Positions 309 through 6,328 of a stretch of 7,023 nt of DNA are shown in pieces. The notes beneath the pieces were generated by a model. The model searched no databases and was not told the origin of the DNA. It saw only the letters and a list, made by a program, of their open reading frames with translations. The DNA is from Halobacteriales archaeon QS_9_70_65 (GTDB taxonomy: Archaea; Halobacteriota; Halobacteria; Halobacteriales; Haloarculaceae), in contig PXSC01000159.1 in the NCBI GenBank assembly GCA_003023535.1, forward strand, positions 1-7,023, in the 5' to 3' direction. Both the position numbers and the translations under genes were made by a program. The first letter of the stretch is position 1; every line of letters starts with the position of its first letter.

Positions 309-1271
309 ATGAAGTCTCGGAGCGAACAGGGCCGCGTCCACCGGCTCGCCTTCGACGTCGACTGGCCGCCCGGCCACGTCGCCTGCTATCTGGCGGACGG
401 CCCGGAGCCGATCCTCGTCGACGCCGCGACGCCGGACCGCGAGGCGGCCTTCCGCGACCGGCTGGCCGACCTCGATTTCGACCCCGGCGACGTCGAACAC
501 GTCATCGTCACCCATCCCCACGTCGACCACATCGGCCAGGTGCCGACGGTGCTGGCCGAGGGCGACCCGACCGTCTACGCGCCGGCGGGCGTTCGCGAAC
601 GGTTCGCCCGCGACCCCGACGACCTGGCGGCCCGGGTCCGGCGCAACTGCGTCGCCGCGGGCTTCCCCGAGGACATGCGGGAAACCGCCGTCGAGATGGC
701 CGTCGACTCCCTGCAGCGGGACTCGGCGCTGCTGAACCCCGACCGCGTGGACGTCTGGCTCGACCCCGGCGAGCGGGCGACCGTCGGCGGCCTCGCCGTC
801 GAGGCGGTGCACGTCCCCGGCCACCAGGCCGACCACCTCGGTTACCGGACCGAAATCGACGGCGAGACCGCTCTGCTGGCCGGCGACGTGGGCATCGAGC
901 CGTTCCGCCCGGTCGTGATGCACGACGGCCTCGACGACGGCCACCGGGAGGCGTTCGACGCCTTCGACGACGCCCTCGACCGGCTGGCGGCCCTCGACGT
1001 CGATCGCGTCTATCCCGGCCACGGCCCCGTCCACGACGACCTCGCGGGGGTCGTCGAGCGGGACCGCCGCAGCCTCGCCGACCGCCTCGAGAATGTCCGC
1101 GACCTCGTCGCCGACGGTCACGCCACCGTGCCGGCAGTCGCGATGGCCCTCGCCGGCGACCGCGACGTCAAGTACCTCGTTCCGGAGACGATGAGCGCGC
1201 TGGCGCACCTCGAGCGGACGGGCGCCGTGACGAGCGAGACCGTCGACGGCGTCCGCCGCTACGACGCGTGA
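309..1271 (+). CDS. MBL-fold metallo-hydrolase (LACTB2/glyoxalase-II-like)
   Basis: A 320-residue metallo-beta-lactamase-fold hydrolase, probably cytoplasmic since no signal peptide is seen. The zinc-binding set is complete: THPHVDH (H69, H71, D73, H74), H172 in PGHQADH, D193 in LAGD and H238 in YPGHGP. These give the two-metal site used by glyoxalase II, LACTB2 and related esterases or nucleases. The C-terminal part (about 250-320, with VPAVAMAL and a helix-turn-beta ending in ERTGAVTSE) resembles the small helical/winged domain that follows the MBL core in LACTB2-like proteins. The substrate is not evident; thioester or ester hydrolysis is plausible beside acyl-CoA genes but is inference. 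ATG 309 is chosen because a TATA-like box lies 28 bases upstream. A longer ORF from an ATG at 281 is in another frame and is a GC shadow until the HAD gene begins. The stop overlaps the HAD start, so the two are probably co-transcribed and translationally coupled. Confidence 0.92.
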   Translation: MKSRSEQGRVHRLAFDVDWPPGHVACYLADGPEPILVDAATPDREAAFRDRLADLDFDPGDVEHVIVTHPHVDHIGQVPTVLAEGDPTVYAPAGVRERFARDPDDLAARVRRNCVAAGFPEDMRETAVEMAVDSLQRDSALLNPDRVDVWLDPGERATVGGLAVEAVHVPGHQADHLGYRTEIDGETALLAGDVGIEPFRPVVMHDGLDDGHREAFDAFDDALDRLAALDVDRVYPGHGPVHDDLAGVVERDRRSLADRLENVRDLVADGHATVPAVAMALAGDRDVKYLVPETMSALAHLERTGAVTSETVDGVRRYDA

Positions 1272-1957
1272 GCAACCCTCACTACGAGGCCGTCCTGTGG
1301 GACATCGGGGGCGTGCTGGTCGAGTTGGCGTCGGTCCGGGCGGGCTACGCCGCCTTCGTCGCCGAGCTCGCCGACGCCCACGACCTCGACCGCGAGGCCG
1401 CACTCGCAACCTGGCGGGAGACCCTCGGCGAGCACTTCCGCGGCCGCGAGGGAACGGCGTACCGGCCCGCCCGCGAGGGCTACCGGACGGCGACGGCGGC
1501 GCTGTTCGACGGCGACCCGCCGGACGGCTGGGAGCGGACCTTCGAGCGGGCGGCCGGTGCCGCCCTCCGGCCGGTCGACGGCGCCGTTGAAACCGTCGAG
1601 CGGCTCGCGGACCGCGACGTCGCACAGGCGATCGTCTCCGACATCGACACCCGGGAGGCCGAAAACGCCCTGGCGACGCTCGGCGTCCGGGACCGGATGG
1701 CCCACGTCACCACCTCCGAGGCGGTCGGCTTCACCAAGCCCGACGAGCGGATGTTCCGGGACGCCCTCACGGCGCTGGACGTCGCGCCAGATGCGGCGCT
1801 GATGGTCGGCGACCGCTACGAGCACGACGTCGCCGGCGCCGCCGCGGTCGGGATCGACGCCGCCGCCTTCGGCGCCGACGCCCGGGGGCCGGCGGCGACC
1901 CACGAACTCGACGACCTCCGGGACCTGCCCGATATCGTGGCGGGCCGGGGGGCCTGA
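1268..1957 (+). CDS. HAD-superfamily hydrolase (subfamily IA-like)
   Basis: A 229-residue HAD phosphatase-like protein beginning at GTG 1268, whose GTGA overlaps the MBL stop TGA by four bases, a sign of translational coupling. Motif I is WDIGGVL, with nucleophile D12 and Gly instead of Asp at D+2. Motif II is IVSDID (S124). Motif III is FTKPDERMF (K157). Motif IV is VGDRYEHDVAGA (D182, D187). The region 25-105 between motifs I and II is the helical cap of class C1. D+2 = Gly occurs in several HAD-IA groups with FDxGGV or FDxGNV motifs, including the HAD domain of animal ACAD10 and YihX-type phosphatases. Such proteins can still form the phospho-aspartate, but the general acid differs. The substrate is unknown. 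Proximity to an APH kinase and an ACAD makes a role in phosphorylated acyl intermediates possible; that is inference only. Confidence 0.9.
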   Translation: MSNPHYEAVLWDIGGVLVELASVRAGYAAFVAELADAHDLDREAALATWRETLGEHFRGREGTAYRPAREGYRTATAALFDGDPPDGWERTFERAAGAALRPVDGAVETVERLADRDVAQAIVSDIDTREAENALATLGVRDRMAHVTTSEAVGFTKPDERMFRDALTALDVAPDAALMVGDRYEHDVAGAAAVGIDAAAFGADARGPAATHELDDLRDLPDIVAGRGA

Positions 1958-1983
1958 ACCGCCCGCCCATCGTCGTCGGAACG

Positions 1984-1989
1984 CTTAAC
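1984..1989 (+). promoter_or_regulatory. TATA-like box of the second SDR gene
   Basis: CTTAAC is centred about 29 bases before the ATG at 2016 and lies in the 58-base gap after the HAD stop. The spacing predicts a leaderless transcript starting at or next to the ATG. The SDR gene therefore seems to have its own promoter rather than depend on the MBL-HAD unit. Confidence 0.55.
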
Positions 1990-2015
1990 GGCCGACCAAC
2001 GAACATCCCCCCACG

Positions 2016-2805
2016 ATGGACCTTGGACTCGACGACAGGACCGCGCTCGTGACGGGCGGGGCCGGACGCATCGGAAGCGAGGACTGCCGCGTGCTCGCCG
2101 CGGAGGGCGCCGAGGTGATCGTTCTCGACGTGGCGCTGGAGAAGGCCGAAAACGTCGTCAGCGAGGTCGAGACGGACCTCGACGGCACCGCCCACGCCGT
2201 CGAGTGCGATCTCACCGACCGCGAGGACGTCGCCGACACCGTCGCCGCCATCGAGGCGGAGACCGGCGGCGTCGACGTGCTGGTGAACAACGCCGGCATG
2301 GTCGACGCCCGCGACAGAATCGAGGACTTCGACGACGACACCTGGGACCGCGACCTCTCGGTGAACCTGACGGGCGCCTACAACGTCACCCGCGAGGTCT
2401 ACCCCCGGATGAAGGAACGCGAGTGGGGCCGCATCATCAGCATGTCCTCGATGGCCGGCTGGCAGGGCGGCTTCGGCCAGCTGTCGTACGCGGCGACGAA
2501 GGCCGGGCTCATCGGCTTCGGCAAGACCCTCGCCTTGGAGGGCGCCCAGCACGGCGTCACCTCCAACGTCATCGCGCCCAGCATCGTCGTCGACCAGCTG
2601 GCGGAGCTGCCGATCGACCAGCTCGAGGAGGTCGACGAGCACTTCGCCCGCATCGCGAAGGCGACCCCGATGCGGAAGGATGCGGAAGCTCGGCACCGAG
2701 GCCGACGTCGCCAACCTCGTGGCGTACCTCGCAAGCGAGCAGGCCAGTTACGTCACCGGCCAGGTCATCGGCGTCACCGGCGGTATCGACCTGTTCACGT
2801 TCTGA
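2016..2805 (+). pseudogene. SDR-family oxidoreductase (FabG-like), frameshifted by a 10-bp duplication
   Basis: A classical SDR whose fold is intact up to residue 221. It has the cofactor loop TGGAGRIG (13-20), acidic D38 after strand 2 (favouring NAD over NADP), D65, NNAG (91-94) and the catalytic tetrad N117, S145, Y158, K162 (YAATK). After TPMRK the reading frame breaks: GATGCGGAAG occurs twice in tandem (2669-2678 and 2679-2688). Removing one copy restores a normal SDR C-terminus (LGTEADVANLVAYLAS, then YVTGQVIGVTGG, ending LFTF) with a stop at 2803-2805, for 259 residues, the usual SDR length. As given, the frame instead runs into an Arg-rich stretch and on into the DUF502 gene, losing the last helix and the conserved GQ-xx-xxxGG end. 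The family acts on hydroxy/keto groups, such as 3-hydroxyacyl-CoA or -ACP. The duplication could be a real null or slippage allele, or an assembly artefact. Confidence 0.85.
2669..2688 (+). repeat. Perfect 10-bp tandem duplication that breaks the SDR gene
   Basis: Two directly adjacent copies of GATGCGGAAG. One copy encodes the normal family sequence (P-M-R-K); the second adds 10 bases and shifts the frame by +1. A duplication of this size is typical of replication slippage and can revert by losing one unit. Confidence 0.95.
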
Positions 2806-2833
2806 TTCCGACGGCGGACGAGCCGAGGACAGA

Positions 2834-2839
2834 TTATTA
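2834..2839 (+). promoter_or_regulatory. TATA-like box of the DUF502 gene
   Basis: TTATTA is the only AT-rich patch in the gap after the SDR gene and is centred 28 bases before the ATG at 2865. This predicts a leaderless transcript and independent expression of the membrane protein. Confidence 0.6.
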
Positions 2840-2864
2840 CCGGCGGCGGCCGCCAGATCCACGT

Positions 2865-3563
2865 ATGAGTGGGGCGTTACCCTCCGAACGGTCCCCGGCG
2901 GAGCGGCTCAAGAGCTACTTCGTGACCGGCGCGGTGCTCGTGATTCCGGCGCTGCTGACGGTCGGCATCGCGGCCTTCGTCTTCCAGTTCCTCTCGGGCT
3001 ACCTCGCGCCGGTGGCCTCGAAAATCGGTGGGGTCGTCGGCGTCAAGGGGGTCCCCGCGGACCTGCTGACCCTCCTTCTGGCACTGGCGGTCGTCGGGCT
3101 GCTCGGGGCGGCCGTCGAGACGCTGCCGTACGGCTCGACGGCGGCGGACCTCTTCCACCGGGCCGTCGAGTCGATTCCGGGCGTCGGCAACGTCTACGGC
3201 GGCTTCCGGGAGATGAGCGAGACCGTCGCCGACGGCGAGGAGAGCTTCCGGGACGTGAAGCTCGTCGAGTACCCCAGCGAGGGCTCCTACACGATGGCCT
3301 TCGTCACCGCCGACGCCCCGGAGTACCTCGAGCAGAGCGTCGACCACGCCGAGGAGGGGATGATGAGCCTCTTCCTCCCGATGGGTCCCAACCCCGTGAT
3401 GGGCGGGTTCGTCATCTACGTCTCCCGCGACCGAGTCCACGACATCGACATCGGCGTCGAAGAGGGGCTGCAGGCCATCATCACCAGCGGCGTGACGATA
3501 AGTGACGACGGCGACGAGCCGGACATCGGCGGGCGGATGCGCGAACGCATCGAGGAGGCCTGA
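2865..3563 (+). CDS. DUF502 family membrane protein
   Basis: A 232-residue integral membrane protein of the DUF502 family, present in bacteria and haloarchaea with no firmly established biochemical role. Two hydrophobic segments, about 18-43 and 65-84, are followed by a soluble C-terminal half. Family marks are clear: ESIPGVGNVYGGF (102-114), VKLVEYPSEGSYTMAFVT (131-148), LFLPMGPNPVMGGFVIYV (169-186) and a DIDIGVEEGLQAIITSGV region (193-210) with the near-invariant EE. Length and order of motifs are normal, so the gene looks intact. The ATG at 2865 fits both the TATA box and the family N-terminus (AERLKSYFVTGAVLVIPALLT). The frameshifted SDR frame happens to be the same frame and open into this gene, but the arginine-rich link between them argues against a real fusion protein. 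It probably has no direct link to the metabolic genes. Confidence 0.92.
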   Translation: MSGALPSERSPAERLKSYFVTGAVLVIPALLTVGIAAFVFQFLSGYLAPVASKIGGVVGVKGVPADLLTLLLALAVVGLLGAAVETLPYGSTAADLFHRAVESIPGVGNVYGGFREMSETVADGEESFRDVKLVEYPSEGSYTMAFVTADAPEYLEQSVDHAEEGMMSLFLPMGPNPVMGGFVIYVSRDRVHDIDIGVEEGLQAIITSGVTISDDGDEPDIGGRMRERIEEA

Positions 3564-3593
3564 TTCGGGACTCGACGACGTGCACGAGGAGAT

Positions 3594-3764
3594 ATGTATT
3601 TTGACGAATCAGTACGCACTGTAAACAATGCCCTCTTCACTAACACGCGTAGATGGCTATCAGTCCTCGGTAGCATCCGCCGAGCGGGGCGTTCGAAGAA
3701 TGCCCCCGAGGCGGTTCTCGCTGACGAGGCCGAAGGCCGAGTCAGCGTAGCGCGCGCGGACTAA
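3594..3764 (+). CDS. Possible small protein of 56 residues, unrecognised
   Basis: An ORF from ATG 3594 to TAA 3762-3764, preceded by GAGGAG a few bases upstream, which could act as a Shine-Dalgarno site. It begins MYFDESVRTVNNALF, is basic in the middle (TRRW, IRRAGRSKN) and ends with APEAVLADEAEGRVSVARAD. I recognise no family. In its favour are the ribosome-binding-like sequence and a plausible amino-acid mix. Against it, the first half lacks the high third-position GC of the neighbouring genes, the second half coincides with hairpins, and another short frame starts at ATG 3628. It may simply be non-coding sequence or a remnant of an element. Confidence 0.25.
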   Translation: MYFDESVRTVNNALFTNTRRWLSVLGSIRRAGRSKNAPEAVLADEAEGRVSVARAD

Positions 3765-3857
3765 CGCGACGCCGGAGGCGTCGCGGCAGGAGCACGCGCG
3801 CATATTTTCCCCACGTTTTTGCCGCGAGCCGGTGTTCGCCGCCTTCCGGCGGCGAAC
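3677..3857. repeat. Cluster of four hairpins between the convergent DUF502 and ACAD genes
   Basis: Within the gene-poor stretch 3564-3882 I see four inverted repeats in a row. First, 3677-3714 is imperfect: CCGCC pairs GGCGG and GGGGC pairs GCCCC around an 11-base loop. Second, 3719-3747 has CGCTGAC/GTCAGCG, then GA opposite GA, then GGCC/GGCC closing a GAA loop. Third, 3765-3785 has a perfect 9-bp stem CGCGACGCC/GGCGTCGCG with loop GGA. Fourth, 3834-3857 has a perfect 10-bp stem GTTCGCCGCC/GGCGGCGAAC with loop TTCC. The third matches in pattern the palindromes inside the ACAD gene. The part before these hairpins (about 3590-3670) is clearly more AT-rich than the surroundings. The cluster could be a palindromic element, transcript-end structures or part of a non-coding RNA. 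Confidence 0.6.
3805..3820 (+). terminator. Possible T-tract terminator for plus-strand transcription
   Basis: TTTT (3805-3808) and TTTTT (3816-3820) lie close together in otherwise GC-rich DNA. Archaeal RNA polymerase ends transcripts at such U-runs. They sit about 250 bases after the DUF502 stop, and a TTTT at 3599-3602 closer to the gene may serve as well. Confidence 0.35.
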
Positions 3858-3871
3858 CCGCGCTCGCGTGC

Positions 3872-3876
3872 AAAAA
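3872..3876 (-). terminator. T-tract terminator of the ACAD gene
   Basis: On the minus strand TTTTT occurs seven bases after the ACAD stop codon (TGA, 3885-3883), followed by the GTTCGCCGCC hairpin at 3834-3857. A U-run just past the stop is the usual archaeal termination signal. Confidence 0.5.
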
Positions 3877-3882
3877 GTGGTT

Positions 3883-5131
3883 TCAGAACGTAGGGAGGTT
3901 CTCCAGTTCGTCCGCGTGCTCGTCGGCGCCGTCGAAGGCCTCGCGGGCGATGACGCGCTGGTGGACCTCGTCGGCGCCGTCGACGATCCGGAAGGCCCGG
4001 ACGGCCTCGTAGAAGTCCGCCAGCGGCAGGTCCCGGGAGATGCCGGCGCCGCCGCAGCACTGCACCGCCAAGTCGATGGCCTCCGCGGCGACGTTGGCGG
4101 TAAACAGCTTCGACATCGAGACCGGCACGCGGGCCTGGTTGCCGCGGTCGAGTTCCTCGGCGGCGTGTCGCACCATCGTCCGGGCGGCGTGGAGCCGCGT
4201 CTCCGCGTCCGCGATGTCGTACCGGAGGGACTGCTTTTCCGACAGCGTCGAGCCGAACGCCTCCCGGTCGGCCGAGCAGGTTCTCTTCGGGAACCCGGAC
4301 GCCGTCGAAGCGGAACTCGGCGTGGCCGTGGCCGTCGAGGTCCGGCCCCAGGTGCGGGATGTCCCGTACCAGCTCGACGCCGTCGGCATCGGTCGGCACC
4401 AGCAAGATGGACGCGCCCTCGTACGGGTGGACGTCCGGGTCGGTGACGGCCATCACCAGCAGGACGTCGGCGTGGCTTCCCTGTGTGGTCCACCACTTGT
4501 GGCCGTCGATGACGTATTCGTCGCCGTCCCGCGCCGCCCTGGGCGGCGCGGAACTCGTCGAGCTTTGCTCGGCGGTGTCCCGCGTCGCCTCGGGCGACGC
4601 GGGGCTCGCCGGGCTCTCCCCGGTGGCGTCCTGCTGTGCCTCCGGCACTGCAGGGCTCGTCGAGTTCCGCTCGACGGCGTCCTTCTCGGCGGTCGTGGCG
4701 AGCATCTTCGGGTCCGAGCCGCCGCCCTGCCGCGGCTCGGTCATGGCGAACCCCGACCGGATCTCCCCGGCGACCAGCGGCTCTAACCACTCTTCCTTCT
4801 GGCGTTCGGTGCCGACGAGTTCGAGGGTGTGCATGTTGCCCTCGTCGGGGGCGTCGACCCGCATGGCCGCCGCACCGAGCAGCGACCGGCCAGCTTCCTC
4901 GAACAGCGGCAGTACGTCCCGGAGGTCGTAGCCCATGCCGCCGTGGGTTTCGTCGATCTGCGGGCAGTAGAGTTCCCGGCGGCGGGCCTCCTCGCGCAGC
5001 TCCGCGATGACGTCCTCGCCGACCGGGCCGTCGCCCAGGTGGTCGCGTTCGGCCGGGATGACGACCTCGTCGACGAACGCGCGGGCCCGCGCGGCCAGCT
5101 CCGTTGCCGTCGGGGAGTCGTGGTACTTCAT
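3883..5131 (-). pseudogene. Acyl-CoA dehydrogenase (ACAD10/11- or LvaC-like), broken by an internal deletion and frameshift
   Basis: An FAD-dependent acyl-CoA dehydrogenase in two frames. The first part, from ATG 5131, gives 288 residues: N-terminal helical domain (1-120), signature FAMTEP (128-133), the GDEYVIDGHKWW strand pair (203-214) and VRVPEENLLGR (278-288). The C-terminal helical domain continues in another frame from about 4266, starting REAFGSTLSEKQSLRYDIAD, through CCGGAGISRDLPL to RIVDGADEVHQRVIAR (3990-3961), then stop at 3883. The RI-x-DG-x-DEVH end marks the ACAD10/11 and LvaC-like group. The block of about 40 residues that normally joins ENLLGR to SREAFG (including the ARLGPGRIHH-type segment) is missing; the missing length is 3n+2 bases. 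Without it the fold should be destroyed. Residues 150-200 are an extra three-unit repeat not found in the family. The TATA-like TTTACA (5160-5155), 27 bases upstream, supports the start. It is divergent from the APH kinase and may share control with it. Confidence 0.88.
4529..4681 (-). repeat. Three tandem 51-bp units, each with a palindrome, inserted in frame in the ACAD gene
   Basis: Units 4529-4579, 4580-4630 and 4631-4681 repeat with an exact 51-bp period (17 codons). Palindrome centres are at 4540, 4591 and 4642. Stems: CGCGCCGCC/GGCGGCGCG (4530-4550), an 11-bp perfect stem with core CGCGTCGCC/GGCGACGCG (4579-4603), and an 11-bp stem with one mismatch (4630-4654). On the coding strand the 17-residue units are KDAVERNSTSPAVPEAQ, QDATGESPASPASPEAT and RDTAEQSSTSSAPPRAA, placed between the family's ATTAE and RDGDEYVIDG. 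In related ACADs AE is followed almost directly by xGDEY, a surface turn of the middle domain, so 51 residues are extra. The units are Ser/Ala/Pro-rich and should be flexible. Confidence 0.9.
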
Positions 5132-5251
5132 ACCACTGCTTCGTGGCACAGCGATGTAAATGAGGGGTCCGACGACCCCCGGTGGCGGCGGATATATACG
5201 TGTGGCTGGCGCACGGTGGCTTACGATGTTAGTCCGCGGAGCGTGGTGCCG
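5132..5251. promoter_or_regulatory. Divergent promoter region of the ACAD and APH-kinase genes
   Basis: Minus-strand box TTTACA (5160-5155) lies 27 bases from the ACAD ATG. Plus-strand box TATATA (5193-5198) should start transcription near 5222-5226. Between the boxes is a perfect inverted repeat with half-sites GGGGTC (5164-5169) and GACCCC (5174-5179), separated by CGAC. Its position next to both boxes suits an operator that would control both genes together. An ATG at 5226 opens a 9-codon ORF (MLVRGAWCR) whose TGA (5253-5255) overlaps the GTG at 5252 as GTGA. Confidence 0.55.
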
Positions 5252-6328
5252 GTGACCGGCGCCGACTACTTCGACCGCATCGTCGACGAGGCGGCGCTGC
5301 GGTCGTACCTCGCCGACGAGCTGGGGCCGGCCGACCGCTTCGAGGTCCGCCACCACCGGCAGGGCCACTCCAACGAGACGCTGTTCGTCACCTGGGGCGA
5401 CCGCGAGCTGGTCGTCCGGCGGCCGCCGCCGGGCGAGACGGCCGACAACGCCCACGACGTCCTCCGGGAGTACCGCGTCGTCGACGCCCTCCAGGACACC
5501 GACGTCCGGGTGCCGGCGACGGTGCTGGCCTGTGACGACCACGACGTCATCGGCAGCGACTTCTACGCGATGGAGCGGGCCGACGGCGACGTGTTGCGGG
5601 ACGCCGAGCCCGACCGCTTCGCCGACCCCGCCTCCCGCGAGCGGGTCGGCGTCGAGCTGGTCGACCGCCTCGCGGAGATCCACGCCGTCGATTACGACGC
5701 CGTCGGCCTCGAACACGGCGACTTCGGCTACCCGCCCGGGTTCACCGAGCGGCAGGTCCGGCGGTGGTCCGAGCAGCTGACCTGGGCGTTCGAGGTCACC
5801 GCCGACGAGCGGGAGGTCGAGACCCTGTACGACGTGATGAGTTGGCTGTACGACAACGCTCCCGACGACGACGAGTACCCCTCGACGTTGGTCCACGGCG
5901 ACTACAAGCTGGACAACGTGATGTTCGGGCCGGGCGAGGACCCCGAGATAGCGGCGATCTTCGACTGGGAGATGTCGACGCTCGGGGACCCGTTCACCGA
6001 CCTCGGCTGGCTGCTGTCGTACTGGTGGGAGCCGACGGACCCCGAGCCGCCGACGTCGACGCTGGCGGCGACGTTCACCGAGCGGGACGGTTACCCGACC
6101 CGTCGGGAGCTGATCGACCGCTACGAACGGCGGACCGGCTTCGTCTTCGACGACGCGCGGTTCTACTGGGTGCTCGCGGTGTACAAGCTGGCCGGCCTCG
6201 GGGAGATGTTCTTCCGCCGACATCTCGAGGGCAACGCCGACGACCCGATGTATCCGAAGATGCGGGAGGCGGTTCCGGCGCTGGCCGAGCGGGCGCGGAT
6301 GATACGCGACGGCGAAATCGAACTGTAG
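5252..6328 (+). CDS. APH-fold phosphotransferase (LvaA / ACAD10-11 kinase-domain type)
   Basis: A 358-residue kinase of the aminoglycoside phosphotransferase (APH, PF01636) fold. The N-lobe has the loop GHSNETLFV (38-46) and ELVVRRPPPG with Arg at the usual lysine strand (56-57), then LREYRVV with helix-C Glu73. The C-lobe has catalytic HGDYKLDN (215-222; D217 base, N222 metal) and IFDWEMSTLGDPFTDLGW, where D238 is the DFG-equivalent. The DWExSTLGDPxxDLG string is the mark of the ACAD10/ACAD11/LvaA-type branch rather than antibiotic kinases. In the Lva and ACAD11 systems this domain phosphorylates the hydroxyl of a 4-hydroxyacyl-CoA, which the ACAD partner then processes. The gene is intact and divergent from an ACAD gene, which supports that role by context. 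The start is uncertain: in-frame GTGs lie at 5216, 5243, 5246 and 5252. I take 5252 because it follows the predicted transcription start, fits the family N-terminus (TGADYFDRIVDEAALRSYL) and overlaps a 9-codon leader ORF. Confidence 0.9.
   Translation: MTGADYFDRIVDEAALRSYLADELGPADRFEVRHHRQGHSNETLFVTWGDRELVVRRPPPGETADNAHDVLREYRVVDALQDTDVRVPATVLACDDHDVIGSDFYAMERADGDVLRDAEPDRFADPASRERVGVELVDRLAEIHAVDYDAVGLEHGDFGYPPGFTERQVRRWSEQLTWAFEVTADEREVETLYDVMSWLYDNAPDDDEYPSTLVHGDYKLDNVMFGPGEDPEIAAIFDWEMSTLGDPFTDLGWLLSYWWEPTDPEPPTSTLAATFTERDGYPTRRELIDRYERRTGFVFDDARFYWVLAVYKLAGLGEMFFRRHLEGNADDPMYPKMREAVPALAERARMIRDGEIEL

What the first reader, a model, noticed from the sequence alone, without database searches (positions are those of the whole stretch)
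1268..6328. An unfused archaeal counterpart of the ACAD10/ACAD11 (HAD-APH-ACAD) module
Seen: an APH kinase with the DWExSTLGDP branch motif, divergent from an ACAD with the RIxDGxDEVH end, and, about 3 kb away, an HAD hydrolase with the DxGGV motif I plus two SDR genes. Known: animal ACAD10 fuses HAD, APH and ACAD domains; ACAD11 fuses APH and ACAD; Pseudomonas LvaA (kinase) and LvaC (ACAD-like) convert 4-hydroxyacyl-CoA to 3-hydroxyacyl-CoA through a 4-phospho intermediate. Inferred: this haloarchaeal locus encodes, or encoded, 4-hydroxy acid or lactone catabolism, with SDRs acting on the hydroxyacyl products. I do not know of this chemistry having been shown in archaea.
Basis: partly seen in the sequence, partly recalled or inferred. 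Interest (0 to 1): 0.75.

Follow-up and report, generated by a model that had tools for sequence, protein, structure and literature searches.

The report
Archaeal 4-hydroxy-acid kinase–dehydrogenase gene set
Many salt-loving archaea carry, as separate and often neighbouring genes, the parts that animals fuse into ACAD10 and ACAD11 (which burn 4-hydroxy fatty acids), and a HAD-family gene often travels with them; in this stretch of DNA the dehydrogenase gene itself is broken.

Summary
The window holds an intact APH kinase (5243-6328+), a divergent ACAD (3883-5131-), a HAD (1268-1957+), a frameshifted SDR and the first 46 codons of another. The ACAD is broken: against L001 and L002, 119 bp are missing at 4270/4271, coding for the ACAD10/11/LvaC-type phosphate-binding motif. 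Intact relatives read RLGPARLTHCMR plus a catalytic Asp; six haloarchaeal paralogues and MCAD lack it. The kinase keeps the residues equivalent to ACAD11 D220, N225, R86 and R176. In 292 class genomes the ACAD is found in 145 and the kinase in 144, all 144 shared; the HAD in 98, all within the 144; a general beta-oxidation gene in 267. I read this as a haloarchaeal, unfused 4-hydroxyacyl-CoA kinase / phospho-eliminating ACAD system, often with HAD, SDR and 3-hydroxyacyl-CoA dehydrogenase/hydratase genes near. Haloferax mediterranei carries such a cluster and is reported to grow on levulinic acid. The HAD shares ACAD10's incomplete DxD motif but scores to other HAD subfamilies. Activity, substrate and HAD role are inferred; nothing was assayed. 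A new variant of a known kind; the window's own ACAD is dead unless the deletion is an assembly error.

The parts
5243..6328 (+). APH-family kinase, intact, 361 aa; predicted 4-hydroxyacyl-CoA kinase
   Evidence: Pfam APH 152.2 bits; PDB best hits 9o56, 3dxp, ACAD11; residues equivalent to ACAD11 R86, R176, D220, N225 kept
4262..5131 (-). ACAD, N-terminal and middle part, start ATG at 5131
   Evidence: PF02771, PF02770; alignment to L001/L002
3883..4266 (-). ACAD, C-terminal part in another frame, with RIVDGADEVH (column of the catalytic Asp)
   Evidence: PF00441 104.4 bits; for the column in intact relatives
4270..4271 (-). Point where 119 bp present in L001 and L002 are missing; the missing segment encodes the RLGPARLTHCMR motif
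   Evidence: DNA alignment and gap count; motif pattern absent from the window at up to 3 mismatches
4534..4586 (-). About 51 bp extra in a variable Ser/Thr/Ala/Pro/Glu-rich loop of the ACAD, relative to L001 and L002 (limits approximate)
1268..1957 (+). HAD hydrolase-like protein, motif I LWDIGGVL (DxG, second Asp of DxD absent)
   Evidence: PF00702 74.1 bits; DIG or DLG in 38 of 38 rows
2016..2805 (+). SDR gene, frameshifted by a 10-bp tandem duplication at 2669-2688
   Evidence: adh_short 185.7 bits for the part 2016-2690; intact 259-aa ORF in L001
1..140 (-). Start of a second SDR, cut by the window edge (46 codons read, 3-140), at the place of the SDR upstream of MBL/HAD in relatives
   Evidence: L001 4065-4841 minus is an SDR; position relative to MBL
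309..1271 (+). MBL-fold hydrolase overlapping the HAD by 4 bp; seen in few of the relatives' loci
   Evidence: PF00753 81 bits; family in 9 of 80 loci, 8 of them hit by the window MBL; PDB best hits are weak

Best explanation
The window is a copy, with a broken dehydrogenase, of a haloarchaeal gene set that moves 4-hydroxyacyl-CoAs into beta-oxidation. The kinase phosphorylates the 4-hydroxyl of a 4-hydroxyacyl-CoA. The ACAD, using FAD in a redox-neutral way, an Asp base and an Arg/His/Arg pocket for the phosphate, removes the phosphate and leaves a 2-enoyl-CoA. An enoyl-CoA hydratase / 3-hydroxyacyl-CoA dehydrogenase fusion, often encoded beside it, takes it further. The partner SDR may make 4-hydroxyacyl-CoA from 4-oxoacyl-CoA (LvaD-like). 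The partner HAD probably restrains the kinase or clears 4-phospho by-products. Shown here: presence, co-occurrence, neighbourhood, motif and residue conservation, tree position. Inferred from ACAD10/11 and LvaA/LvaC: the chemistry. Guessed: exact substrate, SDR and HAD roles.
For: Kinase: nearest solved relatives include ACAD11; the catalytic and CoA-side residues are kept in 25 of 25 haloarchaeal rows. ACAD: in intact relatives the two Arg, the His and the last Arg of the motif and the Asp are kept in 35 of 35 haloarchaeal rows (HCMR in 33, HCLR in 2) and 10 of 10 bacterial rows (HCMR in 9, HAMR in Massilia); MCAD and 6 haloarchaeal paralogues lack the motif. Among ORFs of the 80 kinase loci, 45 of 45 adjacent orthologues that cover the region have it, and 0 of the 15 other ACAD ORFs listed. 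PMC12440821 (abstract and passages): R626, H634 and R637 of ACAD11 are not found in conventional ACADs and their non-conservative substitution is the most disruptive (R637K only partly); R631 is general to ACADs. ACAD tree: this clade against ordinary ACADs 100/99, haloarchaea 100/97. In 292 class genomes: kinase 144, ACAD 145, shared 144; HAD 98, all in the 144; SDR 132 of 144 against 30 of 148; control beta-oxidation fusion 267. Order kinase, 3HCDH/ECH, ACAD, HAD in 12 of the 15 genomes that I picked out as having all four clustered. H. mediterranei plasmid cluster and reported growth on levulinic acid (PMC12455835, passages).
Against: No enzyme was assayed. In the window itself the ACAD has lost the defining motif. 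45 of 127 genomes have kinase and ACAD apart. One genome (G235) has the ACAD without a kinase hit. 46 of 144 kinase genomes have no HAD hit and 12 no SDR hit at my thresholds. The SDR is also in 30 kinase-less genomes. Growth of H. mediterranei on levulinic acid has not been tied to this cluster, and that paper says its data did not fit the growth model well. DUF6285, beside the kinase in Thermus and perhaps LvaB, is absent (0 of 292). Both structure models were too poor to use.
Confidence: 0.8

Rival explanations
1. Same chemistry, different natural substrate: the pair removes a hydroxyl by phosphorylation and elimination from another hydroxyacyl-CoA, for example from isoprenoid, sterol or dicarboxylate breakdown, and 4-hydroxyvalerate-like acids are incidental.
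For: Neighbours vary (LLM monooxygenase, FMN dehydrogenase, GNAT, other ACADs); the haloarchaeal ACAD is a clade of its own, apart from ACAD11; some genomes hold 2 to 4 ACAD copies.
Against: The phosphate pocket residues are those of ACAD11 and of bacterial relatives; SDR, ACAD and kinase are also neighbours in bacteria.
Confidence: 0.25
2. The kinase is a small-molecule or antibiotic phosphotransferase and the ACAD an ordinary acyl-CoA dehydrogenase; their closeness is chance.
For: NCBIfam weakly hits APH(3') (28.8 bits); the best PDB hit, 9o56, is named Aminoglycoside phosphotransferase by its depositors, and sources often give the kinase that name.
Against: Score far below the APH(3') cut-off (205); ACAD11 among the top four PDB hits; near-perfect co-occurrence with the ACAD; the ACAD motif.
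Confidence: 0.03
3. The lesions in the window (119-bp deletion, 10-bp duplication) are assembly or sequencing errors, and the organism has working genes. (A rival about the window copy only; it does not compete with the main explanation.)
For: Two frame-breaking lesions in otherwise conserved genes; L001, with a nearly identical kinase, is intact at both places and L002 at the ACAD; GC-rich DNA with a variable repeat-like loop.
Against: No reads were available; a deletion and a short tandem duplication are ordinary mutations.
Confidence: 0.4

Closest known systems
Animal ACAD11 / ACAD10 (4-hydroxy acid catabolism; PMC12440821, PMC11342911)
   Same: Kinase residues equivalent to D220, N225, R86, R176; ACAD motif with R626, H634, R637 equivalents and Asp base in intact relatives; ACAD10 also has a HAD lacking the second Asp of DxD (passages)
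   Different: Separate genes, mostly divergent where adjacent; the HAD scores to TIGR02253 or the haloarchaeal RuBP-phosphatase model, not to the sEH-like TIGR02247; own clades in both trees; ACAD10 itself not compared by sequence here
Pseudomonas lva operon (LvaA kinase, LvaC ACAD, LvaD SDR, LvaB)
   Same: Unfused kinase and ACAD with an SDR gene; expected same chemistry
   Different: Archaeal host; ACAD usually divergent from the kinase; HAD partner; no DUF6285 (possibly LvaB) in 292 genomes; LvaA and LvaC sequences not in hand, so identity not measured
P. citronellolis / Thermus / Sulfitobacter / Deinococcus kinase clusters with a histidine phosphatase
   Same: A phosphatase-type gene next to or near the kinase (PMC6692424 passages)
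   Different: Histidine phosphatase superfamily there, HAD here; Massilia, Roseivivax and Chelatococcus show no such gene in the stretches seen

Membership tests
4-hydroxyacyl-CoA kinase (ACAD10/11 kinase domain, LvaA type) | Catalytic Asp and Asn (D220, N225 of ACAD11) and CoA-side Arg residues R86, R176 | tested here: met
   25 of 25 haloarchaeal rows including the window (L033 has Q for the H of HGD)
4-hydroxyacyl-CoA kinase (ACAD10/11 kinase domain, LvaA type) | Phosphorylates 4-hydroxyacyl-CoA, not the free acid | not testable with these tools
   needs an assay
4-phosphoacyl-CoA-eliminating ACAD (ACAD10/11/LvaC) | Upstream Arg, HCMR motif, Asp catalytic base: intact relatives | tested here: met
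   35 of 35 haloarchaeal rows; M replaced by L in two
4-phosphoacyl-CoA-eliminating ACAD (ACAD10/11/LvaC) | Same motif in the window's own ACAD | tested here: not met
   segment deleted; the Asp base is present
4-phosphoacyl-CoA-eliminating ACAD (ACAD10/11/LvaC) | Groups with ACAD11 apart from ordinary ACADs | tested here: met
   100/99 (48 of 54 rows; LvaC and ACAD10 not included; long branches among the paralogues)
ACAD10 module (HAD-APH-ACAD) | HAD linked to kinase and ACAD | tested here: met
   98 of 98 HAD-bearing genomes have the kinase; 74 of 98 HAD genes within 12 kb of a listed kinase or ACAD; but 46 of 144 kinase genomes lack a HAD hit
ACAD10 module (HAD-APH-ACAD) | HAD of the same subfamily as ACAD10's | tested here: inconclusive
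   H. mediterranei HAD: TIGR02253 100.9 bits, TIGR02247 44.6; window HAD: 71.1 and 31.9, best NF053830 88.1; ACAD10 HAD sequence not in hand, and that it is of the TIGR02247 type is recalled
Pseudomonas lva operon | LvaB subunit | tested here: inconclusive
   DUF6285 0 of 292, but LvaB = DUF6285 is my inference
Antibiotic APH (APH(3')) | NCBIfam equivalog cut-off | tested here: not met
   28.8 against 205 bits

The most novel reading that the evidence does not exclude
A phosphatase-fold partner is a recurrent, separately recruited element of 4-hydroxyacyl-CoA catabolism: a HAD (DxG type) found in the sampled haloarchaea only in genomes that hold the kinase, a HAD domain in animal ACAD10, a histidine phosphatase in several bacterial clusters. 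Its job would be to hold down or clear 4-phosphoacyl-CoA / 4-phospho acid, so that the archaeal protein would explain the unexplained HAD domain of ACAD10.
Probability: 0.45. Interest if true: 0.72.

Novelty: new variant of a known kind. Interest (0 to 1): 0.6.

Why it matters
It would place a pathway so far described in animals and bacteria in about half of the haloarchaeal genomes sampled (144 of 292), offer a culturable host (H. mediterranei carries SDR, HAD, ACAD, kinase and 3-hydroxyacyl-CoA dehydrogenase in one run on a plasmid, and is reported to grow on levulinic acid), and give an independent handle on what the HAD domain of human ACAD10 does, because here it is a separate gene that can be deleted or purified alone.

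Tried and rejected
Structure models of kinase and ACAD had mean pLDDT 66 and 59; the alignments were shallow. I ran no fold search on them and draw nothing from them. In viral contigs 16 stretches matched a pattern and none encoded a relative. The idea that the MBL gene is a gamma-lactonase feeding the pathway was considered: its family lies in 9 of 80 loci, its PDB hits are weak (the second is named paraoxonase), and the MBL in the H. mediterranei cluster is only distantly alike; not claimed. I did not take the window SDR at 2016 as the conserved SDR; the SDR followed through the genomes is the one upstream of the HAD (H. mediterranei L081:5784-6563). Deriving the HAD from the ACAD10 HAD was dropped on the subfamily scores. 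In the alignment the L002 stretch was wrongly chosen; only the L001 row counts. I fetched the Sulfitobacter region because its listing already showed a histidine phosphatase, so it is not an unbiased pick. Paper searches (I saw listings and starts of abstracts, and opened four papers) showed no report of this pathway in archaea; they cover only the held open-licence library. Rand et al. 2017 was not read; its content is taken from PMC6692424, PMC11342911 and PMC12440821. Papers seen: PMC12440821 abstract and passages; PMC11342911 abstract, passages and section 8; PMC12455835 passages; PMC6692424 passages.
Full report
What is in the window. The window is haloarchaeal: the kinase protein is 98% identical to L001 (MAG Halobacteriales QS_4_69_225) and 96% to L002. 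Left to right: start of an SDR on the minus strand (1-140), MBL-fold gene 309-1271+, HAD 1268-1957+, SDR 2016-2805+ with a frameshift, DUF502 2865-3563+, ACAD 3883-5131- in two frames, APH kinase 5243-6328+ intact. No whole genome is held for the window.

The ACAD is broken in a telling place. Aligned with L001 and L002, the window lacks 119 bp at 4270/4271, so the frame shifts, and has 51 bp more in a low-complexity loop. In the relatives the missing segment contains RLGPARLTHCMR. PMC12440821 (abstract and passages) places R626, H634 and R637 of mouse ACAD11, on one helix beside the catalytic Asp D753, around the 4-phosphate; [quoted passage not shown] Disrupting the region abolished ACAD-domain activity, although R637K did so only partly. 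The window copy keeps the Asp (VDGADEVH) but not the pocket. The SDR has a 10-bp duplication that L001 lacks. Whether these lesions are real or assembly faults cannot be told here.

Intact relatives meet the motif. Of 80 kinase loci (the best 80 of 362 relatives), 46 have the ACAD orthologue next to the kinase (the further adjacent ACAD in L038 is a different paralogue). Of these 46, L020 is a 149-aa piece without the motif region; of the other 45, 44 read RLGPARLTHCMR and L017 RLSPARLTHCMR. None of the 15 other ACAD ORFs listed for those loci has it. In a wider alignment of 54 rows, all 35 haloarchaeal rows keep the two Arg, the His, the last Arg (M is L in two) and the Asp; so do 10 of 10 bacterial plasmid rows (C is A in Massilia) and 4hr3 (C is A) and ACAD11; MCAD and 6 haloarchaeal paralogues do not. 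In the ACAD tree (48 of 54 rows; six haloarchaeal rows left out as near-duplicates) this clade of 41 stands apart from ordinary ACADs at 100/99, and the 29 haloarchaeal rows form one group at 100/97, separate from ACAD11 and the bacterial rows. The tool warned of long branches among the paralogues and of letter make-up in two rows.

The kinase. Its best solved relatives are 9o56, 3dxp and two ACAD11 entries. 9o56 and the weaker 9fsg carry aminoglycoside-phosphotransferase names given by their depositors; I do not know whether these were tested. The positions equivalent to ACAD11 D220, N225, R86 and R176 are kept in 25 of 25 haloarchaeal rows, the window included (L033 has Q for the H of HGD). 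Haloarchaeal kinases form one clade (25 rows, 100/99); several deeper forks are weakly supported, and Thermus, Massilia, Rhodococcus and ACAD11 were flagged as long branches. Thermus lacks the CoA-side Arg residues in that alignment.

Co-occurrence. In 292 genomes drawn evenly from the class of G001 (the genome of L005, Natronomonas gomsonensis), with H. mediterranei queries: ACAD (E<=1e-90) in 145, kinase (E<=1e-90) in 144; the lists differ only by G235, which has the ACAD alone. The HAD (E<=1e-40) is in 98, all inside the 144; 46 of the 144 have no HAD hit. The SDR (E<=1e-80) is in 132 of the 144 and in 30 of the other 148. As a control, the 3-hydroxyacyl-CoA dehydrogenase/enoyl-CoA hydratase fusion (E<=1e-130) is in 267 of 292, so the tight link is not simply having beta-oxidation. 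These counts are not corrected for kinship. In 16 genomes chosen (15 without an ACAD next to the kinase, plus that of L005), all 16 have an ACAD orthologue somewhere, one of them in two pieces.

Neighbourhood. Of 127 genomes whose places for both genes were listed (the tool cut its listings), 82 have them within 10 kb: 68 divergent, 14 convergent; 45 do not. 74 of 98 HAD genes lie within 12 kb of a kinase or ACAD place that I entered, 24 do not. In 12 of 15 genomes that I picked out as having all four genes clustered the order is kinase, 3HCDH/ECH fusion, ACAD (opposite strand), HAD; in the other 3 it is HAD, ACAD, kinase, fusion. In H. mediterranei ATCC 33500 plasmid pHME132 the run is SDR, HAD, ACAD, kinase, 3HCDH fusion. 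H. mediterranei DSM 1411 (the same type strain, as I recall) is reported to grow on levulinic acid at up to 0.097 per hour, with a poor fit to the authors' inhibition model (PMC12455835, passages); no gene was tested there.

The HAD. Motif I is DIG or DLG in 38 of 38 rows: the second Asp of DxD is missing, as PMC11342911 says of ACAD10. In ACAD10, changing the remaining Asp raises kinase output, and phosphatase activity was negligible (section 8). The H. mediterranei HAD scores best to TIGR02253 (100.9 bits) and only 44.6 to TIGR02247, the epoxide-hydrolase-like type; the window HAD scores best to the haloarchaeal RuBP phosphatase model, far below its cut-off (88.1 against 330), then TIGR02253 71.1, TIGR02247 31.9. 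PDB neighbours are PH0459-like and engineered derivatives. I therefore read the pairing as association and not as a split ACAD10 HAD by descent. In bacteria, of seven annotated kinase regions looked at, three show a histidine phosphatase gene next to or near the kinase (Thermus, Sulfitobacter, Deinococcus; Sulfitobacter was picked for that reason), one a tyrosine phosphatase gene about 3 kb off (Rhodococcus oxybenzonivorans), and three none (Massilia, Roseivivax, Chelatococcus). P. citronellolis has a histidine phosphatase gene next to its LvaA homologue and no lvaB (PMC6692424, passages).

Novelty. PMC6692424 reports, citing Rand et al., lvaABCD homologues in Alpha-, Beta- and Gammaproteobacteria. 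My searches listed no paper that describes this pathway in archaea in the held library. The family is known; an archaeal, unfused set with a HAD that was found only alongside it is a new variant.

Noticed in passing
window about 4534-4690, minus strand: A Ser/Thr/Ala/Pro/Glu-rich loop inside the ACAD middle domain, apparently built of repeated units, is 51 bp longer in the window than in L001 and L002; L017 has a shorter loop of similar make-up.
   Followed up: partly
L100, L108, L110 (Thermus, Sulfitobacter, Deinococcus plasmids): Histidine phosphatase genes lie next to or near the kinase, and a DUF6285 gene directly follows it in Thermus; DUF6285 may be the LvaB family (inference).
   Followed up: partly
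window 2865-3563: DUF502 gene between SDR and ACAD; also hit at this place in L001 and L002.
   Followed up: no
loci L004, L005, L030 and others (family f3): A luciferase-like (LLM) monooxygenase family lies within 10 kb upstream of the kinase in 37 of 80 loci (one member identified by Pfam).
   Followed up: no
genome G016 (that of L073, Halobacterium bonnevillei), contig C168:808-2064: The ACAD orthologue matches in two pieces there, possibly another broken copy.
   Followed up: no
window 1268-1957: The window HAD's top NCBIfam match is the haloarchaeal ribulose-1,5-bisphosphate 5-phosphatase (88.1 bits against a cut-off of 330), so a distant relative only.
   Followed up: no
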